Part shown: positions 26,230 to 41,977 of the stretch, one piece after another
Numbering within the stretch: position 1 is the first letter of the stretch
Layout: every line of letters begins with the position of its first letter
IMG/VR virus record: IMGVR_UViG_3300026488_000018
Coordinates: 25,721 to 89,720 of that record
Strand: one strand, 5' to 3'
DNA length: 64,000 nucleotides
Source of the DNA: a virus
Notes under the pieces: generated by a model
What the model saw: only the letters and a program-made list of their open reading frames with translations
Database searches by the model: none
Told to the model about the DNA's origin: nothing
Position numbers and translations under genes: made by a program

Positions 26230-26541
26230 ATGCGTGTTATTGAGCTGGAGGGGGAGTATAGATATGAGTATCCATTTTTAGTGCGAGGTGTTAGTGGTAG
26301 AATGGAGTTTGTGTTTAAGGGTTTTAACCCACCGGCTTTTATTGGAGATATGATGGAAGAAATATGGAACACGGAGTATGTGAATGTCATTGATATGGAA
26401 AATAAGATAAAGAACATTGTTGTTAAGTATGTCAGTGATGATATAAGTGAGTTTAGCGTATCTTTTGTTTATGGAAATAGAACTGACGTATTTAGGTGGG
26501 TGGTTGATTTTGATGATATGGGGGACGAGGAAGAAGATTGA
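26230..26541 (+). CDS. Hypothetical protein
   Basis: A 103-residue acidic protein that I do not recognise. Strand-rich N-terminus (RVIELEGEYRYEYPFLV, GRMEFVFKG) and an acidic DDMGDEEED end. Start ATG 26230 after GAGAGGTGG; the upstream GTG at 26221 lies within that site. It overlaps the next gene by 29 bases. Confidence 0.6.
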   Translation: MRVIELEGEYRYEYPFLVRGVSGRMEFVFKGFNPPAFIGDMMEEIWNTEYVNVIDMENKIKNIVVKYVSDDISEFSVSFVYGNRTDVFRWVVDFDDMGDEEED

Positions 26542-27022
26542 TTTACAGTTAGGTGAGGATGATTATGTTGGTCTAATGAATGTTAGTTCTGAACACGGGT
26601 TTGAGGTAACTAAAGATTATGTTGGCAATTTAGATGATGAGTTGGCGCGGGTACCGTATTTCGGGGTTGTTCAGGAGAATGATGGCTGGGATAATGATGA
26701 GCCACATGTAATTTTTTCCAGGAATGGCCAAATATTTTTTGCCTTTGGTGAGCCAAAATACATGTTGGAAAGAATAGTAAGGAATGTGTTAAAAGGTGGT
26801 TATAAAAAGTTCGCGAATATTAATACAGATTATAATATGGCTTTAGTTGTGGGTAGCCAAGAAGACGGTAGGATTAAACACGTTTATTTGGTTCACAATG
26901 CAGGCAGAATGTTTTATAATGACTGGATATATTCAAACGCTACAGTGACTGCTGACATGAAAGAACTGCTCCCGCGTATTGTTTATGATTGGTGGAATGA
27001 CGTTGTTGTATGGAGGTGGTAA
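26513..27022 (+). CDS. Degenerate class II amidotransferase-like paralogue
   Basis: A 169-residue protein whose second half lines up with the amidotransferase at 28298: both have a P-Y/F-F segment, a D-x-N/Y-P-h-h-F strand, an FVF or FAF strand, R/HNxxxxhYYN and an almost identical IVYDWWND near the end. It lacks the N-terminal MCGI with the catalytic Cys, so it is probably inactive as an amidotransferase. A partner or structural role beside the active copy is likely. The start is uncertain; ATG 26513 follows AGGTGGGTGG. Confidence 0.5.
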   Translation: MIWGTRKKIDLQLGEDDYVGLMNVSSEHGFEVTKDYVGNLDDELARVPYFGVVQENDGWDNDEPHVIFSRNGQIFFAFGEPKYMLERIVRNVLKGGYKKFANINTDYNMALVVGSQEDGRIKHVYLVHNAGRMFYNDWIYSNATVTADMKELLPRIVYDWWNDVVVWRW

Positions 27023-27263: not shown

Positions 27264-27458
27264 ATGGTTTTCGCTGATGTTAGATTTAAGCGAAACGGAC
27301 ATGTTAAGTTTTATACAGATGGGGATAATATTGTTGCAGATTTAGGGGTTATTAAGTTGTATAAGAAGATGAATGGAAGTTCTTTTAGAGAGTTGATACA
27401 TGAGTTTGCTGTTGATATGGACGATGAGATTGTTGAGGAGGTTGTTGTAGATGAGTAA
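27264..27458 (+). CDS. Hypothetical protein upstream of queC
   Basis: A 64-residue acidic protein that I do not recognise, with strands MVFADVRFK, VKFYTDG, NIVADLGVIKLY. ATG 27264 follows GGGGTGAAG. Its 3' end overlaps the queC start by 8 bases, so it is translated with the 7-deazaguanine genes. Confidence 0.55.
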   Translation: MVFADVRFKRNGHVKFYTDGDNIVADLGVIKLYKKMNGSSFRELIHEFAVDMDDEIVEEVVVDE

Positions 27459-28284
27459 GGTTGTTATGGGACTTAGCGGAGGATTGGATAGTGTAACTTT
27501 GATGCATTATTATGCTAAATTGAAGAATTGGGAAGTATACCCAGTATTTTTCTATTATGGTCAGAAGCATGGTGTTGAGTGGAGGTATGCAAAGGAGAAT
27601 GTTAAGATTTTGCAAGATGAAGGGTATAACGTCCACGACCTTATAGGAGTTGATATGAGCTTTTATAGCGACTTTATAGCAGGGTATTCTAATTTGGTTG
27701 AAGGAGGAGATGATGTACCAAGACTTGAAGATGTTTTGGGGGAGCCGAATGTTCCGACTTATGTTCCTTTTAGGAATGCAATATTTGCGATGTTGCTTGC
27801 GGGTTATGCAGAATCTCATGGCGCAGAGTACGTGTCACTTGGTATTGAACAAGTTGATGCTTATTCGGGGTATTGGGATACGACGCTGGAATTTGCGAGA
27901 AGGGTGGATGAGGTGTTTGAGCTTAATAGACAAAATAGGATTCACTTGATTGCACCGTTTGTGACACTCGATAAGGCAAAGGAAATAATTATCGGATATA
28001 ATATTGGTGTTGATTATAGTAAGACTTGGACGAGTTATAAGGTTGCTGGTGTAGATGAAGATGGGAATCCGATAGCATGGACAGATGCGCCAAATTCGAG
28101 GGAGAGAATACTCGCATTTGCAAAAGTGGGGTTGAGAGACCCAATCAAGTATGACAGGGAGATAGATTGGGATAAGCTAATTGAGATGTATCAGAGATAT
28201 GATGTTAAGAGGGATTTTAAGAAAGTGTTATCCGAAGTTGAAAAGAATTTGGAGTGCCAGTTAAGCAAGAAATGGTATTGTTGA
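27451..28284 (+). CDS. queC: QueC-like ATP-dependent synthase without zinc cysteines
   Basis: A 277-residue PP-loop enzyme: VVMGLSGGLDS (residues 4-14) is the ATP pyrophosphatase loop, and PFRNAIFAMLLAGYAE and SLGIEQVDAYSGYWD match QueC. QueC turns 7-carboxy-7-deazaguanine into preQ0. In the family the C-terminus binds zinc through four Cys (TxSCY, CGxCxSC); here the aligned region reads TWTSY ... AWTDAPNS, so all are lost. That resembles specialised QueC domains paired with amidotransferases that act on the nitrile of preQ0. The amidotransferase gene follows directly, so the pair may make archaeosine base. Symbol given for family, not proven reaction. Confidence 0.8.
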   Translation: MSKVVMGLSGGLDSVTLMHYYAKLKNWEVYPVFFYYGQKHGVEWRYAKENVKILQDEGYNVHDLIGVDMSFYSDFIAGYSNLVEGGDDVPRLEDVLGEPNVPTYVPFRNAIFAMLLAGYAESHGAEYVSLGIEQVDAYSGYWDTTLEFARRVDEVFELNRQNRIHLIAPFVTLDKAKEIIIGYNIGVDYSKTWTSYKVAGVDEDGNPIAWTDAPNSRERILAFAKVGLRDPIKYDREIDWDKLIEMYQRYDVKRDFKKVLSEVEKNLECQLSKKWYC

Positions 28285-28297
28285 GGGGGATTGTACA

Positions 28298-28933
28298 ATG
28301 TGCGGTATTGTTGGTTTTAAGGAGTATGTTTCTAATTTTATGGAGGTTTTGGAGAGGAATTCACAGCGTGGTGGGTATTCTTTCGGCTGTGTCATGTTTG
28401 ATAGTGGGGCAGATGTTATAAAGGCAAGACATGACAGGTGGAAGGATTTGATAAAAGATGTGAAGTTTCCATTTTTTGCCCAATTTAGGGCACCAACAAC
28501 GGGGGAACAGGATGAATTTAGGTGGGACGAAAATTATCCACTAATTTTCGAAAAAGATGGGTATGATGTTTATGTATTTGGTAATTGTGTAACGAACGAT
28601 GAATGGTTTAAGAGAGTGAAGGATGAAGATAATAATAACGACATTTACTATATAGGCAAAAATGTTTTAAACAGGGGTTGGAGTTATTTAAGTGAAATTG
28701 AGGGTGTGTTTGCACTGGTGTTTGTGTTTGCTAAAGGAAACAGGGTTGAAAGGGTTATAATGGCGAGGAATACGTATCCGCTGTATTACAATGAAGTGTT
28801 TTATAGTTCGGTTAAATTTGAAGGCCAGAAACCACTGCGCAACGGTATTGTTTATGACTGGTGGAATGATGAAGTGATAGATGAATTTGAGCCATGGGAT
28901 GTTCCATATTTGCTTGAGGAGGTGTTTGGATGA
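28298..28933 (+). CDS. Class II glutamine amidotransferase (GAT of GAT-QueC type)
   Basis: A 211-residue N-terminal-nucleophile amidotransferase. MCGIVGF exposes Cys2 after Met removal; ERNSQRGGYSFG, AQFRAPTTGEQ and VFGNCVTNDEWF follow in the order of the glutaminase fold. In archaea a GAT domain fused to QueC converts preQ0 to archaeosine; phage GAT-QueC proteins are linked to archaeosine in DNA. Here the GAT is a separate protein between queC and queE, implying a two-subunit version. It shares IVYDWWND with the decayed paralogue at 26513. Confidence 0.75.
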   Translation: MCGIVGFKEYVSNFMEVLERNSQRGGYSFGCVMFDSGADVIKARHDRWKDLIKDVKFPFFAQFRAPTTGEQDEFRWDENYPLIFEKDGYDVYVFGNCVTNDEWFKRVKDEDNNNDIYYIGKNVLNRGWSYLSEIEGVFALVFVFAKGNRVERVIMARNTYPLYYNEVFYSSVKFEGQKPLRNGIVYDWWNDEVIDEFEPWDVPYLLEEVFG

Positions 28934-29646
28934 TTCTTACAGAGCCAATTGATGAGAAGTTGGATAAGATACCATTGAGTGAAGTGTTTGAGAGTATTCA
29001 GGGTGAAGGTCCTTTTATGGGCCGTAGAGCATTATTTATACGCTTTGCCGGTTGTAATTTGGCAAATGTTTGCAAGTCATGTGATACAGATTTCCGGGCG
29101 CGTATGTTTGTCACTAAGGAGTGGATTGTTCAGAGAATAATGGATTATGTTAATAAGGGCGGATGGCTTGTTGTATTTACTGGCGGTGAACCAGGACTGT
29201 ATAAGCATGTTATAGATGATATTGTTTGGGAGGTTAAGTGTAAGTCACCCAAGGATGTTCAGTTTCAAGTAGAAACGAACGGTATTATTAAGATGGGCGA
29301 TGAGTTTATCGTGCAGGGCGGTATTGTTGTTGTTAGCCCAAAGAAGGGGTTTGAGGAGTACGCATTGAAGAATTACGCTGGTAAGAATTATGCTCATTTC
29401 AAGGTTGTTGTTGGTGCTCCTAAAGATGACCCAGCATTCTGGAGTTGTGATGAAGGCGAAGGATTTATAAATAAGTTTTTGGAAGAACATTCAAAGAGTA
29501 ACGTTTGGGTGATGCCGTGGGGTGGAGATGAAGAAACTTTGAAACGGACGAGACGTTGCGCTTGGGAGATGGCTGTCAGGTTGGGTATTAATTATTCGGA
29601 TAGGCTTCACGTTGTTACGTATGGTGAAAGTATTTCGGGGGTGTGA
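28930..29646 (+). CDS. queE: QueE radical SAM 7-carboxy-7-deazaguanine synthase
   Basis: A 238-residue radical SAM enzyme. ESIQGEGPFMGRRALFIRF is typical QueE. The cluster Cys are C42, C48 and C51 in CNLANVCKSCDTDF, a C-x5-C-x2-C spacing slightly wider than the usual C-x3-C-x2-C. FTGGEPGLY binds SAM, and QVETNG follows. It converts 6-carboxytetrahydropterin to 7-carboxy-7-deazaguanine. Start ATG in an ATGA overlap with the amidotransferase gene. Confidence 0.88.
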   Translation: MILTEPIDEKLDKIPLSEVFESIQGEGPFMGRRALFIRFAGCNLANVCKSCDTDFRARMFVTKEWIVQRIMDYVNKGGWLVVFTGGEPGLYKHVIDDIVWEVKCKSPKDVQFQVETNGIIKMGDEFIVQGGIVVVSPKKGFEEYALKNYAGKNYAHFKVVVGAPKDDPAFWSCDEGEGFINKFLEEHSKSNVWVMPWGGDEETLKRTRRCAWEMAVRLGINYSDRLHVVTYGESISGV

Positions 29647-29648
29647 TT

Positions 29649-30128
29649 ATGGAGAGTGTCAATGGTTTTAAGATTGTGGATAATGAATATCTTGAGTGGA
29701 GCGATGATTTTGATTCAGGGCATTTCTTGTTTTTCGATTATCCAAGTAAATGTAGAAGACCACATGGACATTCGTTTGAAATAAAGGTTAAAATTTGGGG
29801 GGTCCCGAACGAGAACGGTGTAATTTTTGATTTTAATCACCTAAAGGAAATAGTGAAAGAACTCGACCATAAGATGTTTATACCCGAGAGAGCAGTGGTT
29901 AAGAGAGAAGATGGTTTTGTTGAAGTTGTCACACAGAATGGTGGGTATTTGAAATTGCCAGAGAACGAGGTTATTATCGTGCCGTATAAGAATGTAACGA
30001 GCGAATTTTTAAGTAGGTTTGTTTTGAGACTTATTGCTGAAAAGGCGGGTTATAATGTTAACCACATTGAGGTTTGTATTAAGGAAGATAAGAGAAGTAT
30101 GGTCTGTGCTGAGGCTTATAGGGGGTGA
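29649..30128 (+). CDS. queD: QueD 6-carboxytetrahydropterin synthase
   Basis: A 159-residue T-fold enzyme. H25 in DSGHFLF and H39-G-H41 in CRRPHGHSFE are the zinc ligands, C35 is the catalytic Cys, and FDFNHLKEIVKELDHKMF gives the conserved D-x-N-x-L and LDH motifs. It turns dihydroneopterin triphosphate into 6-carboxytetrahydropterin. ATG 29649 follows GGGGGTGTG; the in-frame GTG at 29643 is within that site. Confidence 0.88.
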   Translation: MESVNGFKIVDNEYLEWSDDFDSGHFLFFDYPSKCRRPHGHSFEIKVKIWGVPNENGVIFDFNHLKEIVKELDHKMFIPERAVVKREDGFVEVVTQNGGYLKLPENEVIIVPYKNVTSEFLSRFVLRLIAEKAGYNVNHIEVCIKEDKRSMVCAEAYRG

Positions 30129-30134
30129 GTTGTT

Positions 30135-30737
30135 ATGAGTAATGTTAAACCAAGGGAAAGGGTTGTTGAAGCCATGAGGGTTCTTGTTGAGACTCTTAAT
30201 AAGGAGTATGGTTGGTTTAATAAAGAAGAGCTGGAGAATACCCCAATAAGAGTTGCGAAATTCTTTGAAGAGTGGTATCAGATGGCAAAGGAAAATGTTG
30301 AGGAGCATATAAAGACATTTGAGACGACCTATGACGGGTTTGTTATGGACACACATATTCCGGTTATTGGAATGTGTAGTCATCACATGCTTCCTATTAT
30401 CGGTGAAATGCATATTGTTTATATACCAGGTACTGATGAAGACGGGAAACTTAAGGTTGTTGGACTTTCGAAGCTTAGTAGAATTGCAAAGAGACATATG
30501 TATCAGCCCATGATTCAGGAGGAGTTTACGGAGAAAGTTCTTAATGATTTGATTGAAGAGATTAATCCGATGTGGGCTATGGTGGTTGTGAAAGCTCAAC
30601 ATGATTGTAAGAGGATTCGTGGTGCAAGAGATATTAATTCAGAGATGATTACCGTTAGAATTTGGCCTAATAACGAGAAGGGGCGCGAACTTGAAAAGAA
30701 GGCTATTGAGTATTTGAAGCTCGCTGGCGTTCTTTGA
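30135..30737 (+). CDS. folE: GTP cyclohydrolase I (FolE)
   Basis: A 200-residue type IA GTP cyclohydrolase: IGMCSHHMLPIIG holds C81 and H83/H84, and AQHDCKRIRGARD gives the second zinc Cys. GLSKLSRI completes the active site. It feeds dihydroneopterin triphosphate to QueD, so folE, queD, queE and queC make a self-sufficient preQ0 pathway from GTP. Many archaea use MptA instead of FolE, so a viral FolE supplies a step some hosts lack in this form. ATG after GGGGGTGAG. Confidence 0.92.
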   Translation: MSNVKPRERVVEAMRVLVETLNKEYGWFNKEELENTPIRVAKFFEEWYQMAKENVEEHIKTFETTYDGFVMDTHIPVIGMCSHHMLPIIGEMHIVYIPGTDEDGKLKVVGLSKLSRIAKRHMYQPMIQEEFTEKVLNDLIEEINPMWAMVVVKAQHDCKRIRGARDINSEMITVRIWPNNEKGRELEKKAIEYLKLAGVL

Positions 30738-30845: not shown

Positions 30846-33800
30846 ATGGTCGAGTATATTAAGAAGAGGGATGGAAGAATTGTTAAGTTTGACAGAAGTA
30901 GAATTGAAAATGCTGTCAGGAAGGCTTTTCTTGATGCCAATAATGGGTATGATGAAAACGACGTGAAGAAAGTTACTCGCGCCGTGCTGTATCGCATTAC
31001 TCAGTTGTATGGCGAGGATGATATTCCAAGCGTGGAAGAGATTAACGATATTGTTGAAATAACACTGATGAAGCACGGGTATTATGATGTTGCGAAGAAG
31101 TTCATAATGTATCGCAAGAAGAAGGAAGATGAGCGCAAGGAGAAGATGCGTATTTGGGGGCTTAAAGAGTGGGTTGATGACCCCGTTCTAAAGAAGTTTA
31201 GTATTAACGCGTTGAGGGTTCTCGCTTCGCGGTATCCAATTAAGGACGAGAATGGTAATATTGTTGAGCTCCCGAGTGAGATTTTCAGACGTGTTGCTGT
31301 TGGTGTTGCTATTGCCGAGATGTTGTATGATAAGAAGGTGTTTGATAAGAACGGCGGTCACAGAGCGCGGTATCCAGAGGTTTTTGAAGGTGAAGAGCTC
31401 GAAAAGCTTGGGGTGGAAATTTTTGGGTATAAACTGAATCGTTATATGTGGGAGAGGCTTTATGAGAGGTTTAAGGAACTTGCCGATGAAGGCAAAATGA
31501 AGGTTTCTTGGGAGCAGTTTGTTGAGCTGGTTAAGGATGGTAAGATTACTAAGAATGCGGAGAAGTATGCTAAAGAGTGGTATGAGTTAATGGTTAATCA
31601 GTACATGATGCCTAACACGCCAACGATTAGCAATGCAGGAAGACCGTTTTATATGTTATCAGCATGTTTTGTGAATTATTTAGAAGATAGTTTAGAAGGG
31701 ATTATGAAAACAGCCCATGATATAGCAATTATAAGTAAGTATGGTGGTGGTAATGGAGTTGATTTAACTGTGTTGAGGCCAGAAGGGGATAAGGTTTCGA
31801 AGACAAGTGGCGTGAGTTCGGGACCCGTTTCGTTTCTGCATATGTTTGATGCTATTAGTAATGTTATTAAAGAAGGTGGGATAAGGCGTTCAGCTGGCAT
31901 GGCTGTTATGCAGTATTGGCATCCAGACATTGATAAGTTTATTTATGCAAAGAAAGATAACGATGGTAAGAGTGTCCTCACCACGTTTAATATCAGTGTT
32001 GGTCTTTGGGAGGAGTTCTGGGAGAAACTTGAGAAGGGTGAAGAGTTTGAATTGATTAATCCGCGCGATGGTTCTGTCTGGGGCAAGAAGGATGCGAGGA
32101 AGTTTTTTGAGGAACTTGCTTATATGGCTTGGGCGAAGGCTGACCCCGGTGTGCTGTATTTTGATAGACACAATCAGTATAATATTATGCGTGAGAAGTG
32201 GGGCGATATTACCGCGACTAATCCGTGTCTAACTGGAGATGCTTTGGTTGTTACCCCCGCAGGTCTAAAGAGAATGGACGAACTGAGAGAGGGAGATATG
32301 GTTTACGTTGGTAACGGGAAGTTTGAGAAGATTGTGAAGTTTTATGATTTAGGTGAACAAGACGTGTACCGTATTGTTACAAGGATGGGGTTTGAGATTA
32401 AAGCGACGGGTGACCACAGGTTTATGACGAGTCGTGGTGTTAAGAGAGTTGATGAGATGAAGGTCGACGACACAGTATTTGTTTGGATGAATTGGAAGAG
32501 GCAGGAGTATGGTGTTGGTGAATTTGTTCCAGATGTAATTGTTAAGATTGAATATGTTGGTAAGGAGCGTGTTTACGATTTCGAAACTGATGGCAATAAG
32601 TGGTTCTTTGCGAACGGTATTTATAATTTGGATTGCGGTGAAGAAGCTTTGTATCCTTACGAGGCATGCAATTTACTGAGTATTAATCTGTGGAAGTTTG
32701 TAAAGGAGGATGAAAATGGTAATAAGTATTTTGATTGGGATGAATATGCTAAGGTTATTAAGAGCGCCGTGAGAATGCTTGATGATGTAATTGAGGTGAA
32801 TAAGTATCCTCTTCCGGAGATTAACGAGATGGTAAAGAAGACGCGGCGCGTTGGTCTTGGCTTTATGGGTATTGCTGAGGCACTGTTTGAGCTGGGTATT
32901 CCATATAATAGCAAGGAAGCATATGATTTAATGAAGAAGTGGGCGGAGACTAACCAGTATTTTGCCATGGTAGAGAGCGTTGAGCTTGCAAAGGAGAGAG
33001 GTGAGTTTCCGGCGTTTGAAGAGAGCGGTTATGTTAGGGGAGAACTCCCCGTCGCTGGGTATTATGAAGTTCCAAGAGAGGAGTGGAATTATGATTGGGA
33101 TGGTTTAGTTGAAGAAATAAAGAAGCATGGTATCAGGAATGCGTTTCTTACTACTGCGCCCCCAACGGGTTCGGTTTCAATGATTGCTGATACTTCAAGC
33201 GGTATTGAACCACAGTTTGCGCTTGCGTATAAGAAGAGTGTTACAATTGGTGAATTCTACTACATCGACCCAGTATTTGAAAGAGTGTTGAAGGAGAGAG
33301 GTATTTACTCGGATGATTTAATTAAGAAGATTGTCGATAACGGTGGTTCAGTGCAGGGTATTGAAGAAGTTCCAGAAGATATTAGAAGAGTGTTTGTTAC
33401 GGCAATGGATATTCATTGGATGGACCATATTCTGGCGCAGGCGGTATTCCAGTTGTGGACTGATGTGAGTATTTCAAAGACGATTAATATGCCCGAAAAT
33501 GCAACGGTAGAGGATGTTAAGGCTGCGTATTTGATGGGTCATTATCTCGGGTTGAAGGGTGTCACAGTGTATCGCATGAACAGTTTAACTTATCAGGTAT
33601 TGTCAACGGAGAAGAACAAGAGGAAAGAGCCAGAGATGAGCGATTACGCGAAGGAGACATTCGAAAGAATTTTGAATGAACACGAATGGTTAAAGTCGTA
33701 TATCAACCTCGAAGAAATTAGTGGTTATAAGTTAAAGCAGAAGAACGGTGGATTGTTTTTGAATGTTGGTTTTGAGTTTCCAAGAAAAGAACCGACCCCC

Positions 33801-34043
33801 CAGCAGGGTATTGATTTGAGTAAAGTGGGCGAGTTGATTGAGAAGTATGCTAAGAGTGGAGAGAGTATTGTTGATGATGATGTATTTAAGGCAATTGATG
33901 AAGAACTTCGTAAAAAAGGCCTACTTGGCACCGCGTATTGTCCAATATGCTGGGAGAAGGATAGGGTATTAAGCCCAGTTGTGTTCGAGGCGGGGTGTAA
34001 GACGTGTAAGAGATGTGGTTGGAGCGCTTGTACAGTTGCTTAA
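30846..34043 (+). CDS. nrdJ: Class II (B12-dependent) ribonucleotide reductase with mini-intein
   Basis: A 1065-residue precursor; removing residues 461-596 gives a 929-residue enzyme. An ATP-cone opens the protein (YIKKRDGRIVKFDRSRIENAV). The core has SNAGRPFYMLSACFV with an active-site Cys, the finger-loop region NPC|GEEALYPYEACNLLSINL with Cys, and APPTGSVSMIADTSSGIEP. The C-terminal CPIC ... CKTCKRCGW holds zinc and redox Cys typical of NrdJ. No NrdB subunit is nearby, consistent with class II. It reduces ribonucleotides for viral DNA synthesis. ATG after GGGGGAG, with its own promoter. Confidence 0.9.
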   Translation: MVEYIKKRDGRIVKFDRSRIENAVRKAFLDANNGYDENDVKKVTRAVLYRITQLYGEDDIPSVEEINDIVEITLMKHGYYDVAKKFIMYRKKKEDERKEKMRIWGLKEWVDDPVLKKFSINALRVLASRYPIKDENGNIVELPSEIFRRVAVGVAIAEMLYDKKVFDKNGGHRARYPEVFEGEELEKLGVEIFGYKLNRYMWERLYERFKELADEGKMKVSWEQFVELVKDGKITKNAEKYAKEWYELMVNQYMMPNTPTISNAGRPFYMLSACFVNYLEDSLEGIMKTAHDIAIISKYGGGNGVDLTVLRPEGDKVSKTSGVSSGPVSFLHMFDAISNVIKEGGIRRSAGMAVMQYWHPDIDKFIYAKKDNDGKSVLTTFNISVGLWEEFWEKLEKGEEFELINPRDGSVWGKKDARKFFEELAYMAWAKADPGVLYFDRHNQYNIMREKWGDITATNPCLTGDALVVTPAGLKRMDELREGDMVYVGNGKFEKIVKFYDLGEQDVYRIVTRMGFEIKATGDHRFMTSRGVKRVDEMKVDDTVFVWMNWKRQEYGVGEFVPDVIVKIEYVGKERVYDFETDGNKWFFANGIYNLDCGEEALYPYEACNLLSINLWKFVKEDENGNKYFDWDEYAKVIKSAVRMLDDVIEVNKYPLPEINEMVKKTRRVGLGFMGIAEALFELGIPYNSKEAYDLMKKWAETNQYFAMVESVELAKERGEFPAFEESGYVRGELPVAGYYEVPREEWNYDWDGLVEEIKKHGIRNAFLTTAPPTGSVSMIADTSSGIEPQFALAYKKSVTIGEFYYIDPVFERVLKERGIYSDDLIKKIVDNGGSVQGIEEVPEDIRRVFVTAMDIHWMDHILAQAVFQLWTDVSISKTINMPENATVEDVKAAYLMGHYLGLKGVTVYRMNSLTYQVLSTEKNKRKEPEMSDYAKETFERILNEHEWLKSYINLEEISGYKLKQKNGGLFLNVGFEFPRKEPTPQQGIDLSKVGELIEKYAKSGESIVDDDVFKAIDEELRKKGLLGTAYCPICWEKDRVLSPVVFEAGCKTCKRCGWSACTVA
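32226..32633 (+). other. Mini-intein in NrdJ (136 residues)
   Basis: An in-frame insertion splits the conserved NPC|GEEALYPYEACNL motif. It begins with CLTGDALVVTP (block A), has TGDHRF with the block B T-x-x-H, and ends with RVYDFE ... FFANGIYNLD (blocks F/G) just before the +1 Cys. There is no homing endonuclease, so it is a splicing-only or formerly mobile element. The C-terminal residue is Asp, not Asn, and the penultimate residue is Leu, not His, both unusual for splicing. Confidence 0.85.
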
Positions 34044-35111: not shown

Positions 35112-35280
35112 GGTTGTACGTATTATCGGTGATAAAGTTATTCCTCTTTTTACTGTTGATGGTGATGAGTTTAGTAATATAGAGCTTGCGCGCGAGTATG
35201 GGTTTGACGGCATGGATGAAGAGAAAATCAAGAAGCTTCTCTGGGATAATCCATATCTTAATTATAGGGAGGTGGAGTGA
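35098..35280 (+). CDS. Small hypothetical protein
   Basis: A 60-residue protein: an N-terminal strand pair (RVIEVVRIIGDKVIPLFTVDG) and a helical end (EEKIKKLLWDNPYL). Start ATG 35098 after GGGTGGGTG. It overlaps the kinase-like gene start in an ATGA-like junction. Confidence 0.55.
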   Translation: MRVIEVVRIIGDKVIPLFTVDGDEFSNIELAREYGFDGMDEEKIKKLLWDNPYLNYREVE

Positions 35281-37625
35281 TGCAGGGTGCAGAAAAATTC
35301 CAAGGGAAGTCTTATTCAGAAGTTCCACCCGAGTATAGGTATTATGTTGATGAAGAAGAGGAGAGTAAATTTAGGGCAATGGGTGTTCCTATATATGAGG
35401 GTCCACATGGTGGGAAGTTTATAGATAGACGCGATTTGATTAGACACGGTGAGAGAAATCCAATTGAAGTGTCAAGTACGAATATTATTAAGTTGAAACA
35501 GTATTACGACGCTTTATTGGAACGAGGCAGTATTGATTCGGATGAGATGAAGAATGTGATAGCGGCGTTGAATTGGGTAAGATTTAAGGGAATGGCCCGC
35601 AAGGTGGGTGATTTGAGTGTTATTGATGATAAAATTGCTAAGGTCGAGAAATTAGATATAAATTCGTTAAATAGGGATATTTTGTTTAAAGTTCAGTTTA
35701 AGGACGGAACATACGCGTATATGAAGAAGCTTTTTCCTGATGAAATGATAGAGGTTAGGGTTGCCGGTATTACAGGACATATTGTTAGTAATATGTTGGA
35801 GAAGATTGTTGAAAGTGATGTTTTGAAGAAGCTATTACCGAAAGGGCGTTTGGTTAATTACAACGGCGATTGGTATTTTATGACAGATGAAGTGTATGGT
35901 GTTTTGGGTGTTAACGCGAGGGATAAGCTGAAGGATATTGATTTCAATAGTGACGACATGATAGATTTGATGGCGGGTTTGATTGTAATTGGGTTAGGTG
36001 ATTTACATTTTGCTAATGTATTCTATGAGCCAAACGCAAAGATAATAATTCCATTTGATTTTGATTTCGCAGGAAGTAACATTAAAATTACAAATTTTGG
36101 ACCACTTGATTTTATTGCGAGGGTTGATAAGGATAAGTTTAAGGATTTGGATTTCAGGAAACTTGCCGATAAAGTTGTTGAAAAATTTGAAAAATATAAC
36201 GGTGAACTACGTCAGTATTTGTCAGATGAAGAAGATGTATTGAAGACGTATATTAATGCAGATGAGCGGGACGTTGATTTTGCGATTGAGAGTTTTTATG
36301 AGTGGTTTAATAGACTTGGAAAAATTGTTCAGATGTATAAGGATGGAATGATAAATGGTTTTGGGATGTTAGTTAATGTTGGTTCGGCGAGACCAAAAGT
36401 TAATATTAGGGCGTTTATCGGCGATGATTTATTTAATGAGTTGATAAATGATTTTTCGAAAGCCGCAAAGGTACCGGCTGAGTATAGGTTGTATATTAAT
36501 AACTGGCAGGCCCAACGATTTAGGCGCAAGGGTATTAAAGTTTACAGAGGCCCGCGTGGTGGGCTGTATGTTGATATCAGAGAGTTAAAGAATAGAGGTG
36601 TTAATACAGACGAAGTTAAGGTGGTTGAGGAGTTTAAACCGGAGTTACTGGAGGATTCTAAGAATTTGAATGCTATTATTGCCAGGGTTGCAGAAGAACC
36701 AAAATTACGTGTGGCCGTTGTTAACGAATTGAGGAAGGGTATTGATTACATGATAGAGAAACTTATTGATTACAAGTTAGGGCAGAATAGGGAGGAGTAT
36801 TTGTTACATTATCGCAGAGCAGTGAATGCAGCATTTGTGCTAAATGCGTTGAATGGGAAAGCAATGGCGAATGATATGAACAACGATAATTACAAGGTGG
36901 TATCGTTTAGTGATGTTGGTGCGCAACCGGGTGTTATAAATGTGACATCGATGTTTATAGGAGAATTTCTGGATGGGTCACATATTTTTGCAAAGGAGTT
37001 GACGGATGATGCCGAGTGGGTTGTAAATAATTATGTTGCCCCAGCGTTGATTAAGGTATTGGTTGGTCGCGAGTATTCGGACTTTATTCCAACACCGCGT
37101 ATTATAGTGAAGGATGGTAGAGTGTTTGTTGGGACGAGTGAGGTGTATGGAGTTACTGGCATGGATTTAATGGGTATTCAAGATATTGAGTTAAAGAACG
37201 TGGATAGGTTCATGGATTTTCTCGCCGCTCACTATGTTGTTGGTTTGGATGATAGCCACGAGTCAAATTACTTCATAGATCCAGAGAACGGAGTATTTGT
37301 ACAGTTTGATGTTGATTATGCGTTTATGAGGGGTGGAACGGAGCTTCATATAGGTACTATGGTGGAAAAATTAGCAGAGTGGTACGGTTTTGATGCAACG
37401 GAGGTAAAGAGAAGAGGGATAGAGAAGTTGTTACAAAAAGAAAAGGAGATAATGTTCACTATAAGAGCGTTACGCGCGTCGTTAGATGTTTATGATATGC
37501 CCGAGGATAAGAAGGAGATAATGAAGAAGGGTATTGATAGAGCAGGCGCGTTTATGTTTGAACTTATCAGGAAAGCAAAGAAAGACCCAGACGAAGCTAT
37601 ACGGTATTTGGACAGCAAAATTTGA
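35280..37625 (+). CDS. Tandem kinase-like protein with repeated GPRGG modules
   Basis: A 781-residue protein built of two similar halves. Each half opens with a short module (VPPEYRYYV ... GPHGG at 14-57; VPAEYRLYI ... GPRGG at 398-441) also found in the 4250 protein. Each then has a kinase-like fold: half one shows a nucleotide-binding strand with MKKLF, catalytic GD241LHFAN246 and metal-binding FD260FD262; half two keeps D658SHESN and FD677VDYA in degenerate form. The GDLHxxN and DxD pattern matches aminoglycoside-phosphotransferase and HipA-like kinases. Target unknown; a packaged host-modifying kinase is conceivable. ATG 35280 follows GGAGGTG. Confidence 0.6.
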   Translation: MQGAEKFQGKSYSEVPPEYRYYVDEEEESKFRAMGVPIYEGPHGGKFIDRRDLIRHGERNPIEVSSTNIIKLKQYYDALLERGSIDSDEMKNVIAALNWVRFKGMARKVGDLSVIDDKIAKVEKLDINSLNRDILFKVQFKDGTYAYMKKLFPDEMIEVRVAGITGHIVSNMLEKIVESDVLKKLLPKGRLVNYNGDWYFMTDEVYGVLGVNARDKLKDIDFNSDDMIDLMAGLIVIGLGDLHFANVFYEPNAKIIIPFDFDFAGSNIKITNFGPLDFIARVDKDKFKDLDFRKLADKVVEKFEKYNGELRQYLSDEEDVLKTYINADERDVDFAIESFYEWFNRLGKIVQMYKDGMINGFGMLVNVGSARPKVNIRAFIGDDLFNELINDFSKAAKVPAEYRLYINNWQAQRFRRKGIKVYRGPRGGLYVDIRELKNRGVNTDEVKVVEEFKPELLEDSKNLNAIIARVAEEPKLRVAVVNELRKGIDYMIEKLIDYKLGQNREEYLLHYRRAVNAAFVLNALNGKAMANDMNNDNYKVVSFSDVGAQPGVINVTSMFIGEFLDGSHIFAKELTDDAEWVVNNYVAPALIKVLVGREYSDFIPTPRIIVKDGRVFVGTSEVYGVTGMDLMGIQDIELKNVDRFMDFLAAHYVVGLDDSHESNYFIDPENGVFVQFDVDYAFMRGGTELHIGTMVEKLAEWYGFDATEVKRRGIEKLLQKEKEIMFTIRALRASLDVYDMPEDKKEIMKKGIDRAGAFMFELIRKAKKDPDEAIRYLDSKI

Positions 37626-41224: not shown

Positions 41225-41977
41225 GTGAGATTGGCTATTATTGCGCCGAAGGCATATTTTCCGCTGACTAAGAATTATAGCGATGATTATGGATTATTTC
41301 TCGCACATTGGGTGAGAGATAATAATGAATTCGCAGAGATGGTTGAGAATTTGAATTTTAGTATAAAAATTCTCGACAATGGTGCTGCGGAAGGACAACT
41401 TATTTACGATGTAGATATGTTAATGACTTTAGCTGATAAGATAGGCGCGGATGAAATTATTATCCCAGATGTATTTAGGAATTTCAGCAGAAGCTGGGCA
41501 AACGTCGTGCGGTATTATGATGTTATTCGTGATGCGGGGTTTAGGCCATTTGTTGTATTGCAGGGCGCAACTATTAATGAATTGGAGAAGTTTTGGGTGA
41601 ATATATACGAGAGTGGTTATAAGGATGCGGTGATAGGGTTAGGCAATGAAGTATTTTTACAAGCGGATAGGAGTAGTAAGCAACCAAGGAATAAGTTTGT
41701 TTGGTATATGCTGAGTAAACATCCATGGATTGTTGATTACGATATTCACTATCTCGGATATTCGACTATTTGGGATTGGCTTTATGCCCCGCGGTTTATC
41801 AGGGGCAGTGATAGCGGTATTTTCCTTAAGGCGGCAAAGTTGAGAATGCTGGAAATTCCAGATAAACATATTTCGGGGTATCATCTTGAGGTGGACGAGC
41901 CGTTTAATAATGACGTGTATTCGCGGGCGAAGTATCTGATCGAGAAAACGAAAATGCGTATTGATAGGGGGTGGTGA
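41225..41977 (+). CDS. DpdA-like tRNA/DNA-guanine transglycosylase
   Basis: A 250-residue TIM-barrel-type protein with landmarks of viral DpdA (TGT superfamily): ILDNGAAEG, EIIIPDVFRN, FRPFVVLQGATINE, DAVIGLGNEVF, IHYLGYSTIWDW and FIRGSDSGIF, where D196 is the candidate nucleophile. TGT enzymes exchange guanine for 7-deazaguanine bases in tRNA; DpdA does this in DNA. With the queC-folE cluster 11 kb upstream it would put preQ0 or archaeosine into viral DNA. It lacks the long TGT C-terminus and lies apart from the synthesis genes. GTG start after GGAGGTG. Confidence 0.65.
   Translation: MRLAIIAPKAYFPLTKNYSDDYGLFLAHWVRDNNEFAEMVENLNFSIKILDNGAAEGQLIYDVDMLMTLADKIGADEIIIPDVFRNFSRSWANVVRYYDVIRDAGFRPFVVLQGATINELEKFWVNIYESGYKDAVIGLGNEVFLQADRSSKQPRNKFVWYMLSKHPWIVDYDIHYLGYSTIWDWLYAPRFIRGSDSGIFLKAAKLRMLEIPDKHISGYHLEVDEPFNNDVYSRAKYLIEKTKMRIDRGW

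What the first reader, a model, noticed from the sequence alone, without database searches (positions are those of the whole stretch)
27451..30737. Complete viral preQ0 pathway with a free amidotransferase and zinc-less QueC
folE, queD, queE and queC lie together with a separate class II amidotransferase. In described systems this amidotransferase is fused to QueC (GAT-QueC) and makes archaeosine. Here QueC has lost all four zinc Cys (TWTSY ... AWTDAPNS in place of TxSCY ... CGxCxSC) while keeping SGGLDS. A split GAT plus QueC-like pair suggests the enzyme amidates preQ0 to archaeosine base, perhaps while also doing the QueC step, an arrangement I do not know to be described.
Basis: partly seen in the sequence, partly recalled or inferred. 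Interest (0 to 1): 0.72.

Follow-up and report, generated by a model that had tools for sequence, protein, structure and literature searches.

The report
Viral guanine-modification operon with zinc-free QueC
A tailed virus, probably of archaea, carries its own gene set for making a modified guanine and putting it into its DNA; the last enzyme of the pathway is split into two proteins and has lost its usual zinc site, and both traits turn out to recur separately across many viruses.

Summary
QueC, a free class II amidotransferase (GAT), QueE, QueD and FolE form one tight operon at 27451-30737. QueC keeps its ATP and substrate motifs, but all four zinc cysteines are gone. The 89.7-kb record holds no second QueC.

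The interpretation needs correcting. Split GAT beside QueC is widespread: KVP40, nt-1 and 6E35.1a (6E351A) have it, as do 73 of 146 non-redundant QueC loci surveyed. Zinc loss is a separate trait: 21 of 146 loci lack the site, with at least three origins, and 18 of those 21 have no GAT nearby. Phage 6E351A, with QueC, split GAT and QueF, has about 15% of its dG as dPreQ1 (PMC12028318). So such a pair delivers preQ0 and does not mainly make archaeosine.

I also found the missing inserter: a divergent DpdA/TGT-like transglycosylase at 41225-41977, missed by Pfam and PHROGs, identified by a family profile and fold matches. No QueF or ArcS was found.

Best reading: the GAT feeds glutamine ammonia to a zinc-free QueC that makes preQ0, and the DpdA-like enzyme inserts it, probably as dPreQ0. 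dG+ remains possible. New variant of a known kind.

The parts
27451..28284 (+). zinc-less QueC (277 aa), only PF06508 gene of the record
   Evidence: PF06508 E 1.6e-34; below the NCBIfam QueC equivalog cut-off, 104 of 150.3 bits; motifs and lost Cys; single copy
28298..28933 (+). free class II glutamine amidotransferase (211 aa), 13 bases after queC
   Evidence: profile of relatives E 3.6e-24; invariant C2, R24, G25, N96, D115; AF2 pLDDT 91 and Foldseek to GlmS/PurF/EgtC glutaminases
28930..29646 (+). QueE, radical SAM 7-carboxy-7-deazaguanine synthase
   Evidence: PF04055; QueE PHROG 1.9e-36
29643..30128 (+). QueD, 6-carboxytetrahydropterin synthase
   Evidence: PF01242 E 2.6e-17
30135..30737 (+). 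FolE, GTP cyclohydrolase I
   Evidence: PF01227 E 5.6e-38
41225..41977 (+). divergent DpdA/TGT-like base transglycosylase (250 aa), outside the finding's coordinates
   Evidence: profile of QueC-linked small DpdAs E 4.2e-20 with the window left out, 3.8e-60 with it in; invariant D51, H175, G178, D196; Foldseek PDB top hits tRNA-guanine transglycosylase 7.8e-07, DpdA 7ui4 2.4e-05; viral library hits incl. phage queuine tRNA-ribosyltransferases; PF01702 and PHROGs miss it
26447..27022 (+). ORF upstream of queC resembling the C-terminal half of the GAT, no N-terminal Cys: probable degenerate GAT paralogue (role unknown, membership uncertain)
   Evidence: pairwise BLASTP E 1e-09, 29% over 136 aa, shared IVYDWWND; no Pfam or PHROG hit

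Best explanation
This is a viral DNA-modification module. FolE, QueD and QueE make 7-carboxy-7-deazaguanine (CDG) from GTP. The QueC protein is a zinc-free member of the QueC family that adenylates CDG and converts it, via the amide ADG, to preQ0. The free GAT is the glutaminase subunit of this enzyme: it hydrolyses glutamine and hands ammonia to QueC, so the pair works as a two-part, glutamine-dependent preQ0 synthase. A divergent DpdA-like transglycosylase encoded 10.5 kb downstream exchanges guanine in the viral DNA for the product, most likely giving dPreQ0, as protection against host restriction. Shown here by sequence and fold: gene identities, operon, intact catalytic residues, loss of the zinc site, TGT fold of the inserter. 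Inferred: GAT-QueC contact, ammonia transfer, activity without zinc, the inserted base, the anti-restriction role.
For: Complete FolE-QueD-QueE-QueC operon. Residues essential in E. coli QueC by mutagenesis (Y35, R99, Y131, Y189; PMC13329287) are all kept (Y36, R108, Y141, Y196). GAT lies directly downstream of QueC here and in 54 other of 146 non-redundant loci, near it in 18 more, so the partnership is conserved across distant viruses. GAT catalytic residues invariant in 33 members; fold of a glutaminase. Phage 6E351A has QueC + split GAT + QueF + DpdA2 and 15% of dG modified, mass fitting dPreQ1, which QueF makes from preQ0 (PMC12028318): a QueC/split-GAT virus delivers free preQ0. nt-1, with the same pair, has mainly dPreQ0 (PMC6884629). 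30 of 73 GAT-bearing loci also carry a QueF-like gene. Zinc-less QueCs L167, L171, L174 sit beside QueF and a DpdA, which suggests that zinc-less QueC still yields preQ0. DpdA-like gene found. No QueF (only a sub-threshold hit inside FolE) and no ArcS domain in the record.
Against: Fused Gat-QueC in phage 9g gives dG+, not dPreQ0 (PMC6884629), so GAT presence can go with archaeosine. nt-1 DNA is only about 0.1% modified and contains some dG+. In 6E351A, QueF could drain preQ0 away from a G+ reaction that would otherwise dominate. Both comparison phages keep the zinc site, so the zinc-less case is untested. No structure of a GAT-QueC complex could be made. The DpdA-like protein is far from known DpdAs (17-27% identity to its own family).
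Confidence: 0.55

Rival explanations
1. One reading: the GAT-QueC pair makes the archaeosine base (G+). The ADG-adenylate, instead of losing AMP to give the nitrile, is attacked by a second ammonia from the GAT and yields the amidine; DpdA then inserts G+, giving dG+.
For: Fused Gat-QueC of phage 9g plus DpdA puts dG+ into E. coli DNA even without host queC (PMC6884629). Split GAT is homologous to that GAT domain (E 4e-13 to 6e-14). No QueF or ArcS in the record to use preQ0 otherwise.
Against: Viruses with the split pair carry dPreQ1 (6E351A) or mainly dPreQ0 (nt-1). Split GAT co-occurs with QueF in 30 of 73 loci. The QueC of the split clade is phylogenetically apart from 9g-type fused QueC.
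Confidence: 0.28
2. Zinc loss stops the enzyme at the amide: QueC plus GAT is an ADG synthetase and the DNA carries dADG, as in Campylobacter phages.
For: dADG is a known viral base (PMC8306585). Loss of a conserved site next to the substrate pocket could abolish the second step.
Against: Campylobacter phage CP220 QueC keeps all four zinc Cys, so dADG does not need zinc loss. Zinc-less QueC occurs beside QueF, which needs preQ0. The Tyr required for preQ0 formation is kept.
Confidence: 0.08
3. The pathway boosts archaeosine or queuosine in host tRNA rather than modifying viral DNA.
For: The record lacks a canonical TGT/DpdA by PF01702; an archaeal host would use preQ0 for tRNA.
Against: A divergent DpdA-like gene is present, and its family lies near QueC in at least twenty other viral loci.
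Confidence: 0.07

Closest known systems
Schizotequatrovirus preQ0/preQ1 cluster (KVP40, nt-1, 6E351A)
   Same: FolE, QueD, QueC and transglycosylase; QueC followed directly by a free GAT (KVP40.0124/0125, nt-1 VPFG_00172/173, 6E35.1a p0049/p0048); GAT of the same family
   Different: Their QueC keeps the zinc site; DpdA2 instead of the small DpdA-like protein; KVP40 and 6E351A also have QueF; the GAT is not named as part of the pathway in the papers I could read (PMC8056088, PMC12028318)
Gat-QueC of phage 9g and Crenarchaeota
   Same: Class II GAT plus QueC; GAT domains homologous
   Different: One fused polypeptide, zinc site intact in 9g, and 9g makes dG+ (PMC6884629); here two proteins and no zinc site
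Canonical QueC (TIGR00364, E. coli and B. subtilis, PDB 2pg3 and 3bl5)
   Same: PF06508 family and all four residues shown essential by mutagenesis; 2pg3 E 1.5e-11
   Different: No zinc motif, YWDT in place of YPDC, C-terminal extension, below the equivalog cut-off
Halovirus HVTV-1 preQ1 cluster (archaeal tailed virus)
   Same: Archaeal tailed virus with FolE, QueD, QueE, QueC
   Different: Zinc site intact, QueF present, no split GAT in the stretch read; DNA carries dPreQ1 (PMC6884629)
Zinc-less QueC of L020-L025 (IMG/VR)
   Same: Closest relatives (44-46% identity), zinc-less, DpdA-like of the same family next to QueC
   Different: No GAT in the records searched whole, FolE2 instead of FolE

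Membership tests
QueC (PF06508) | PF06508 match above gathering score | tested here: met
   119.7 bits against 22
QueC (PF06508) | SGGxDS, YxQxHxxE and VPxRN motifs | tested here: met
   SGGLDS, YGQKHGVE, VPFRN
QueC (PF06508) | YPDC motif | tested here: inconclusive
   YWDT: Tyr and Asp kept, Pro and Cys not; YWD is the rule in the split-GAT clade
Canonical QueC | C(x)8CxxCxxC zinc site | tested here: not met
   all four Cys replaced: S, W, A, S
Canonical QueC | NCBIfam TIGR00364 equivalog cut-off | tested here: not met
   104 of 150.3 bits
Canonical QueC | makes preQ0 from CDG | not testable with these tools
   needs an enzyme assay
Class II glutamine amidotransferase | Cys directly after the initiator Met and conserved Asn/Asp of the glutaminase site | tested here: met
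   C2, N96, D115 invariant in 33 members
Class II glutamine amidotransferase | Ntn-hydrolase glutaminase fold | tested here: met
   Foldseek to GlmS 1.6e-07, EgtC, PurF
Class II glutamine amidotransferase | direct Pfam match | tested here: not met
   none for the window protein; 19 of 33 relatives match GATase_6
Gat-QueC | GAT and QueC in one polypeptide | tested here: not met
   two ORFs in different frames, 13 bases apart
Gat-QueC | makes archaeosine | not testable with these tools
   needs nucleoside MS
DpdA (DNA 7-deazaguanine transglycosylase) | TGT-type fold | tested here: met
   Foldseek TGT 7.8e-07, DpdA 7ui4 2.4e-05; model pLDDT 76, pTM 0.78
DpdA (DNA 7-deazaguanine transglycosylase) | two conserved catalytic Asp positions | tested here: met
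   D51 and D196 invariant in 25 members and aligned with those of 9g and CAjan-like DpdA
DpdA (DNA 7-deazaguanine transglycosylase) | PF01702 match | tested here: not met
   no match in the record
DpdA (DNA 7-deazaguanine transglycosylase) | inserts the base into DNA | not testable with these tools
   needs an assay; assignment to a DpdA3 or DpdA4 subfamily could not be checked because that paper is not held

The most novel reading that the evidence does not exclude
A zinc-free QueC with a separate GAT subunit makes the archaeosine base directly, by a second ammonolysis of the ADG-adenylate, and a divergent DpdA inserts it: another way to dG+, in an archaeal virus, showing that zinc is dispensable in the QueC reactions and that GAT delivery decides between nitrile and amidine.
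Probability: 0.22. Interest if true: 0.68.

Novelty: new variant of a known kind. Interest (0 to 1): 0.5.

Why it matters
It brings to light a family of free glutaminases tied to QueC in dozens of viruses, including well-studied vibriophages, where it is annotated as hypothetical or left out of the pathway. It also shows that the zinc site, a hallmark of QueC, has been lost at least three times, so natural zinc-free enzymes exist to test what the zinc does. And it supplies a likely base-inserting enzyme that standard family searches miss, which bears on how complete current counts of 7-deazaguanine viruses are.

Tried and rejected
Searches of the record for known inserters with PF01702, DpdA1 and DpdA2 profiles found nothing, which first suggested polymerase-borne incorporation as proposed for Campylobacter phages; dropped once the L020-type DpdA profile hit 41225-41977. 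Single-sequence searches of IMG/VR with the GAT and QueC found almost nothing; alignments were needed. The idea that zinc loss and split GAT are one co-evolved innovation was rejected by the cross-table and by whole-record searches. A single origin of zinc-less QueC was rejected (p-AU 1.9e-06). A first count of zinc status by regular expression misread several loci and was replaced by an alignment-based count. A sub-threshold QueF hit in the record is the FolE gene itself, a fold relative. Two key papers, Cui 2023 NAR and the 2024 MMBR review, are not held, so earlier mention of the split GAT or of this DpdA group there is not excluded. The host could not be named: the nearest terminase is that of Halogranum tailed virus 1 at 29%.
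Full report
What is there. The window is bases 25721-89720 of an 89,720-base virus record. It encodes a family B DNA polymerase, an archaeal/eukaryotic-type primase large subunit, a helicase with an archaeal helicase domain and a T4-type terminase. Its terminase is closest to that of Halogranum tailed virus 1 and its polymerase to those of haloarchaeal tailed viruses, at 27-29% identity. It is therefore probably an archaeal tailed virus; the host is not known. At 27451-30737, on the + strand, lie queC, a free GAT, queE, queD and folE, overlapping or separated by a few bases. The record holds one PF06508 gene only.

The QueC. The protein matches PF06508 at E 1.6e-34 but falls below the NCBIfam QueC cut-off. 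A 2026 study of the family showed by mutagenesis that Y35, R99, Y131 and Y189 of E. coli QueC are needed for activity (PMC13329287). All four are kept (Y36, R108, Y141, Y196). The zinc motif is not: its four Cys read S, W, A, S. In an alignment of 146 non-redundant QueCs, 21 lack the site. They fall into several lineages: the window with L020-L025 (weakly joined, support 60/90); L100 with L103; and a larger group with L157-L165, L167, L171-L174, L184 and a Flavobacterium phage. With the zinc columns removed from the tree, four changes are needed and a single zinc-less clade is rejected (p-AU 1.9e-06). One of the four changes could be a regain, since L176 and L178 with intact sites sit inside a zinc-less group. 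At least three separate losses is the safe statement.

The GAT. The window protein has no Pfam hit, but a profile of its relatives finds it at E 3.6e-24. It carries the expected Cys2, Asn96 and Asp115, invariant across 33 members. Its predicted structure (pLDDT 91) matches the glutaminase domains of GlmS, EgtC and PurF. The family profile also recognises the GAT domain of the fused Gat-QueC of phages 9g and JG054.

How common the arrangement is. The free GAT follows QueC directly in Vibrio phages KVP40, nt-1, 1.081.O, 2.275.O and 6E35.1a. In the survey it is adjacent in 55 and nearby in 18 of 146 loci. The sample was drawn by similarity to the window-type QueC, so this is not a frequency among all viruses. 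In published gene lists of these phages that I could read, QueD, FolE, QueC, QueE, DpdA2 and QueF are named but not the GAT (PMC8056088, PMC12028318). Whether other papers name it could not be checked.

The two traits are independent. Of 73 GAT-linked QueCs, 70 keep the zinc site. Of 21 zinc-less QueCs, 18 have no GAT in the stretch seen, and whole-record searches of eleven IMG/VR records and one 160-kb phage genome with zinc-less QueC found no GAT, while L100's record has one. The window is the only case found where a zinc-less QueC and a GAT are directly adjacent.

What the pair makes. Fused Gat-QueC of 9g leads to dG+ (PMC6884629). The split pair has been measured only indirectly. Phage 6E351A (record 6E35.1a) has QueC, split GAT, QueF and DpdA2, and 15% of its dG has a mass fitting dPreQ1 (PMC12028318). 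QueF makes preQ1 from preQ0, so preQ0 is released. nt-1 has mostly dPreQ0 with traces of dADG and dG+ (PMC6884629). Thirty of 73 GAT-bearing loci carry a QueF-like gene. These facts favour ammonia supply for preQ0 synthesis over archaeosine synthesis as the general role of the split GAT. Chemically, the ADG-adenylate formed in the second step can lose AMP to give the nitrile, or be attacked by ammonia to give the amidine. A GAT could push it the second way, so G+ in the window virus stays open. This last point is inference.

The inserter. PF01702, PHROGs and DpdA1/DpdA2 profiles find no transglycosylase. The closest zinc-less QueC loci, L020-L025, have a small DpdA-like gene right after QueC. 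Its profile hits window 41225-41977. With the window left out of the profile the hit is E 4.2e-20, and the next protein of the virus is at 0.085. The model (pLDDT 76, pTM 0.78) matches tRNA-guanine transglycosylases and the solved DpdA 7ui4 and several phage queuine tRNA-ribosyltransferases. Asp51 and Asp196 are invariant and line up with those of 9g and CAjan-like DpdA. So the virus very likely encodes its own inserter, which also argues against a role limited to host tRNA. From memory, a 2023 paper defines DpdA3 and an archaeal-virus DpdA4; I could not test whether this protein is one of them.

Verdict. I file the QueC as a zinc-less member of PF06508, not as a canonical QueC, and the whole as a new variant of the known viral 7-deazaguanine systems.

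Noticed in passing
window 41225-41977: Divergent DpdA/TGT-like transglycosylase that Pfam and PHROGs miss; became part of the finding.
   Followed up: yes
window 26447-27022: ORF just upstream of the operon whose C-terminal half resembles the GAT (E 1e-09, shared IVYDWWND) but lacks the N-terminal Cys: probable degenerate GAT paralogue.
   Followed up: partly
window 30846-34043: Ribonucleotide reductase large subunit (ATP cone, barrel) with a mini-intein in the barrel domain (PF14890 E 2.5e-10), directly downstream of folE.
   Followed up: partly
L020-L025 (IMG/VR): Zinc-less QueC viruses with FolE2 in place of FolE, a uracil-DNA-glycosylase domain fused to a family A DNA polymerase (L020), and an unknown 236-aa gene upstream of QueC.
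   Followed up: no
L122, L126, L127: Archaeoglobus, Geoglobus and Ferroglobus MAGs with QueC-QueE-QueD operons, zinc site intact, related to the viral QueC.
   Followed up: no
window 35277-37625: 782-aa ORF in the same gene row with no Pfam or PHROG match.
   Followed up: no
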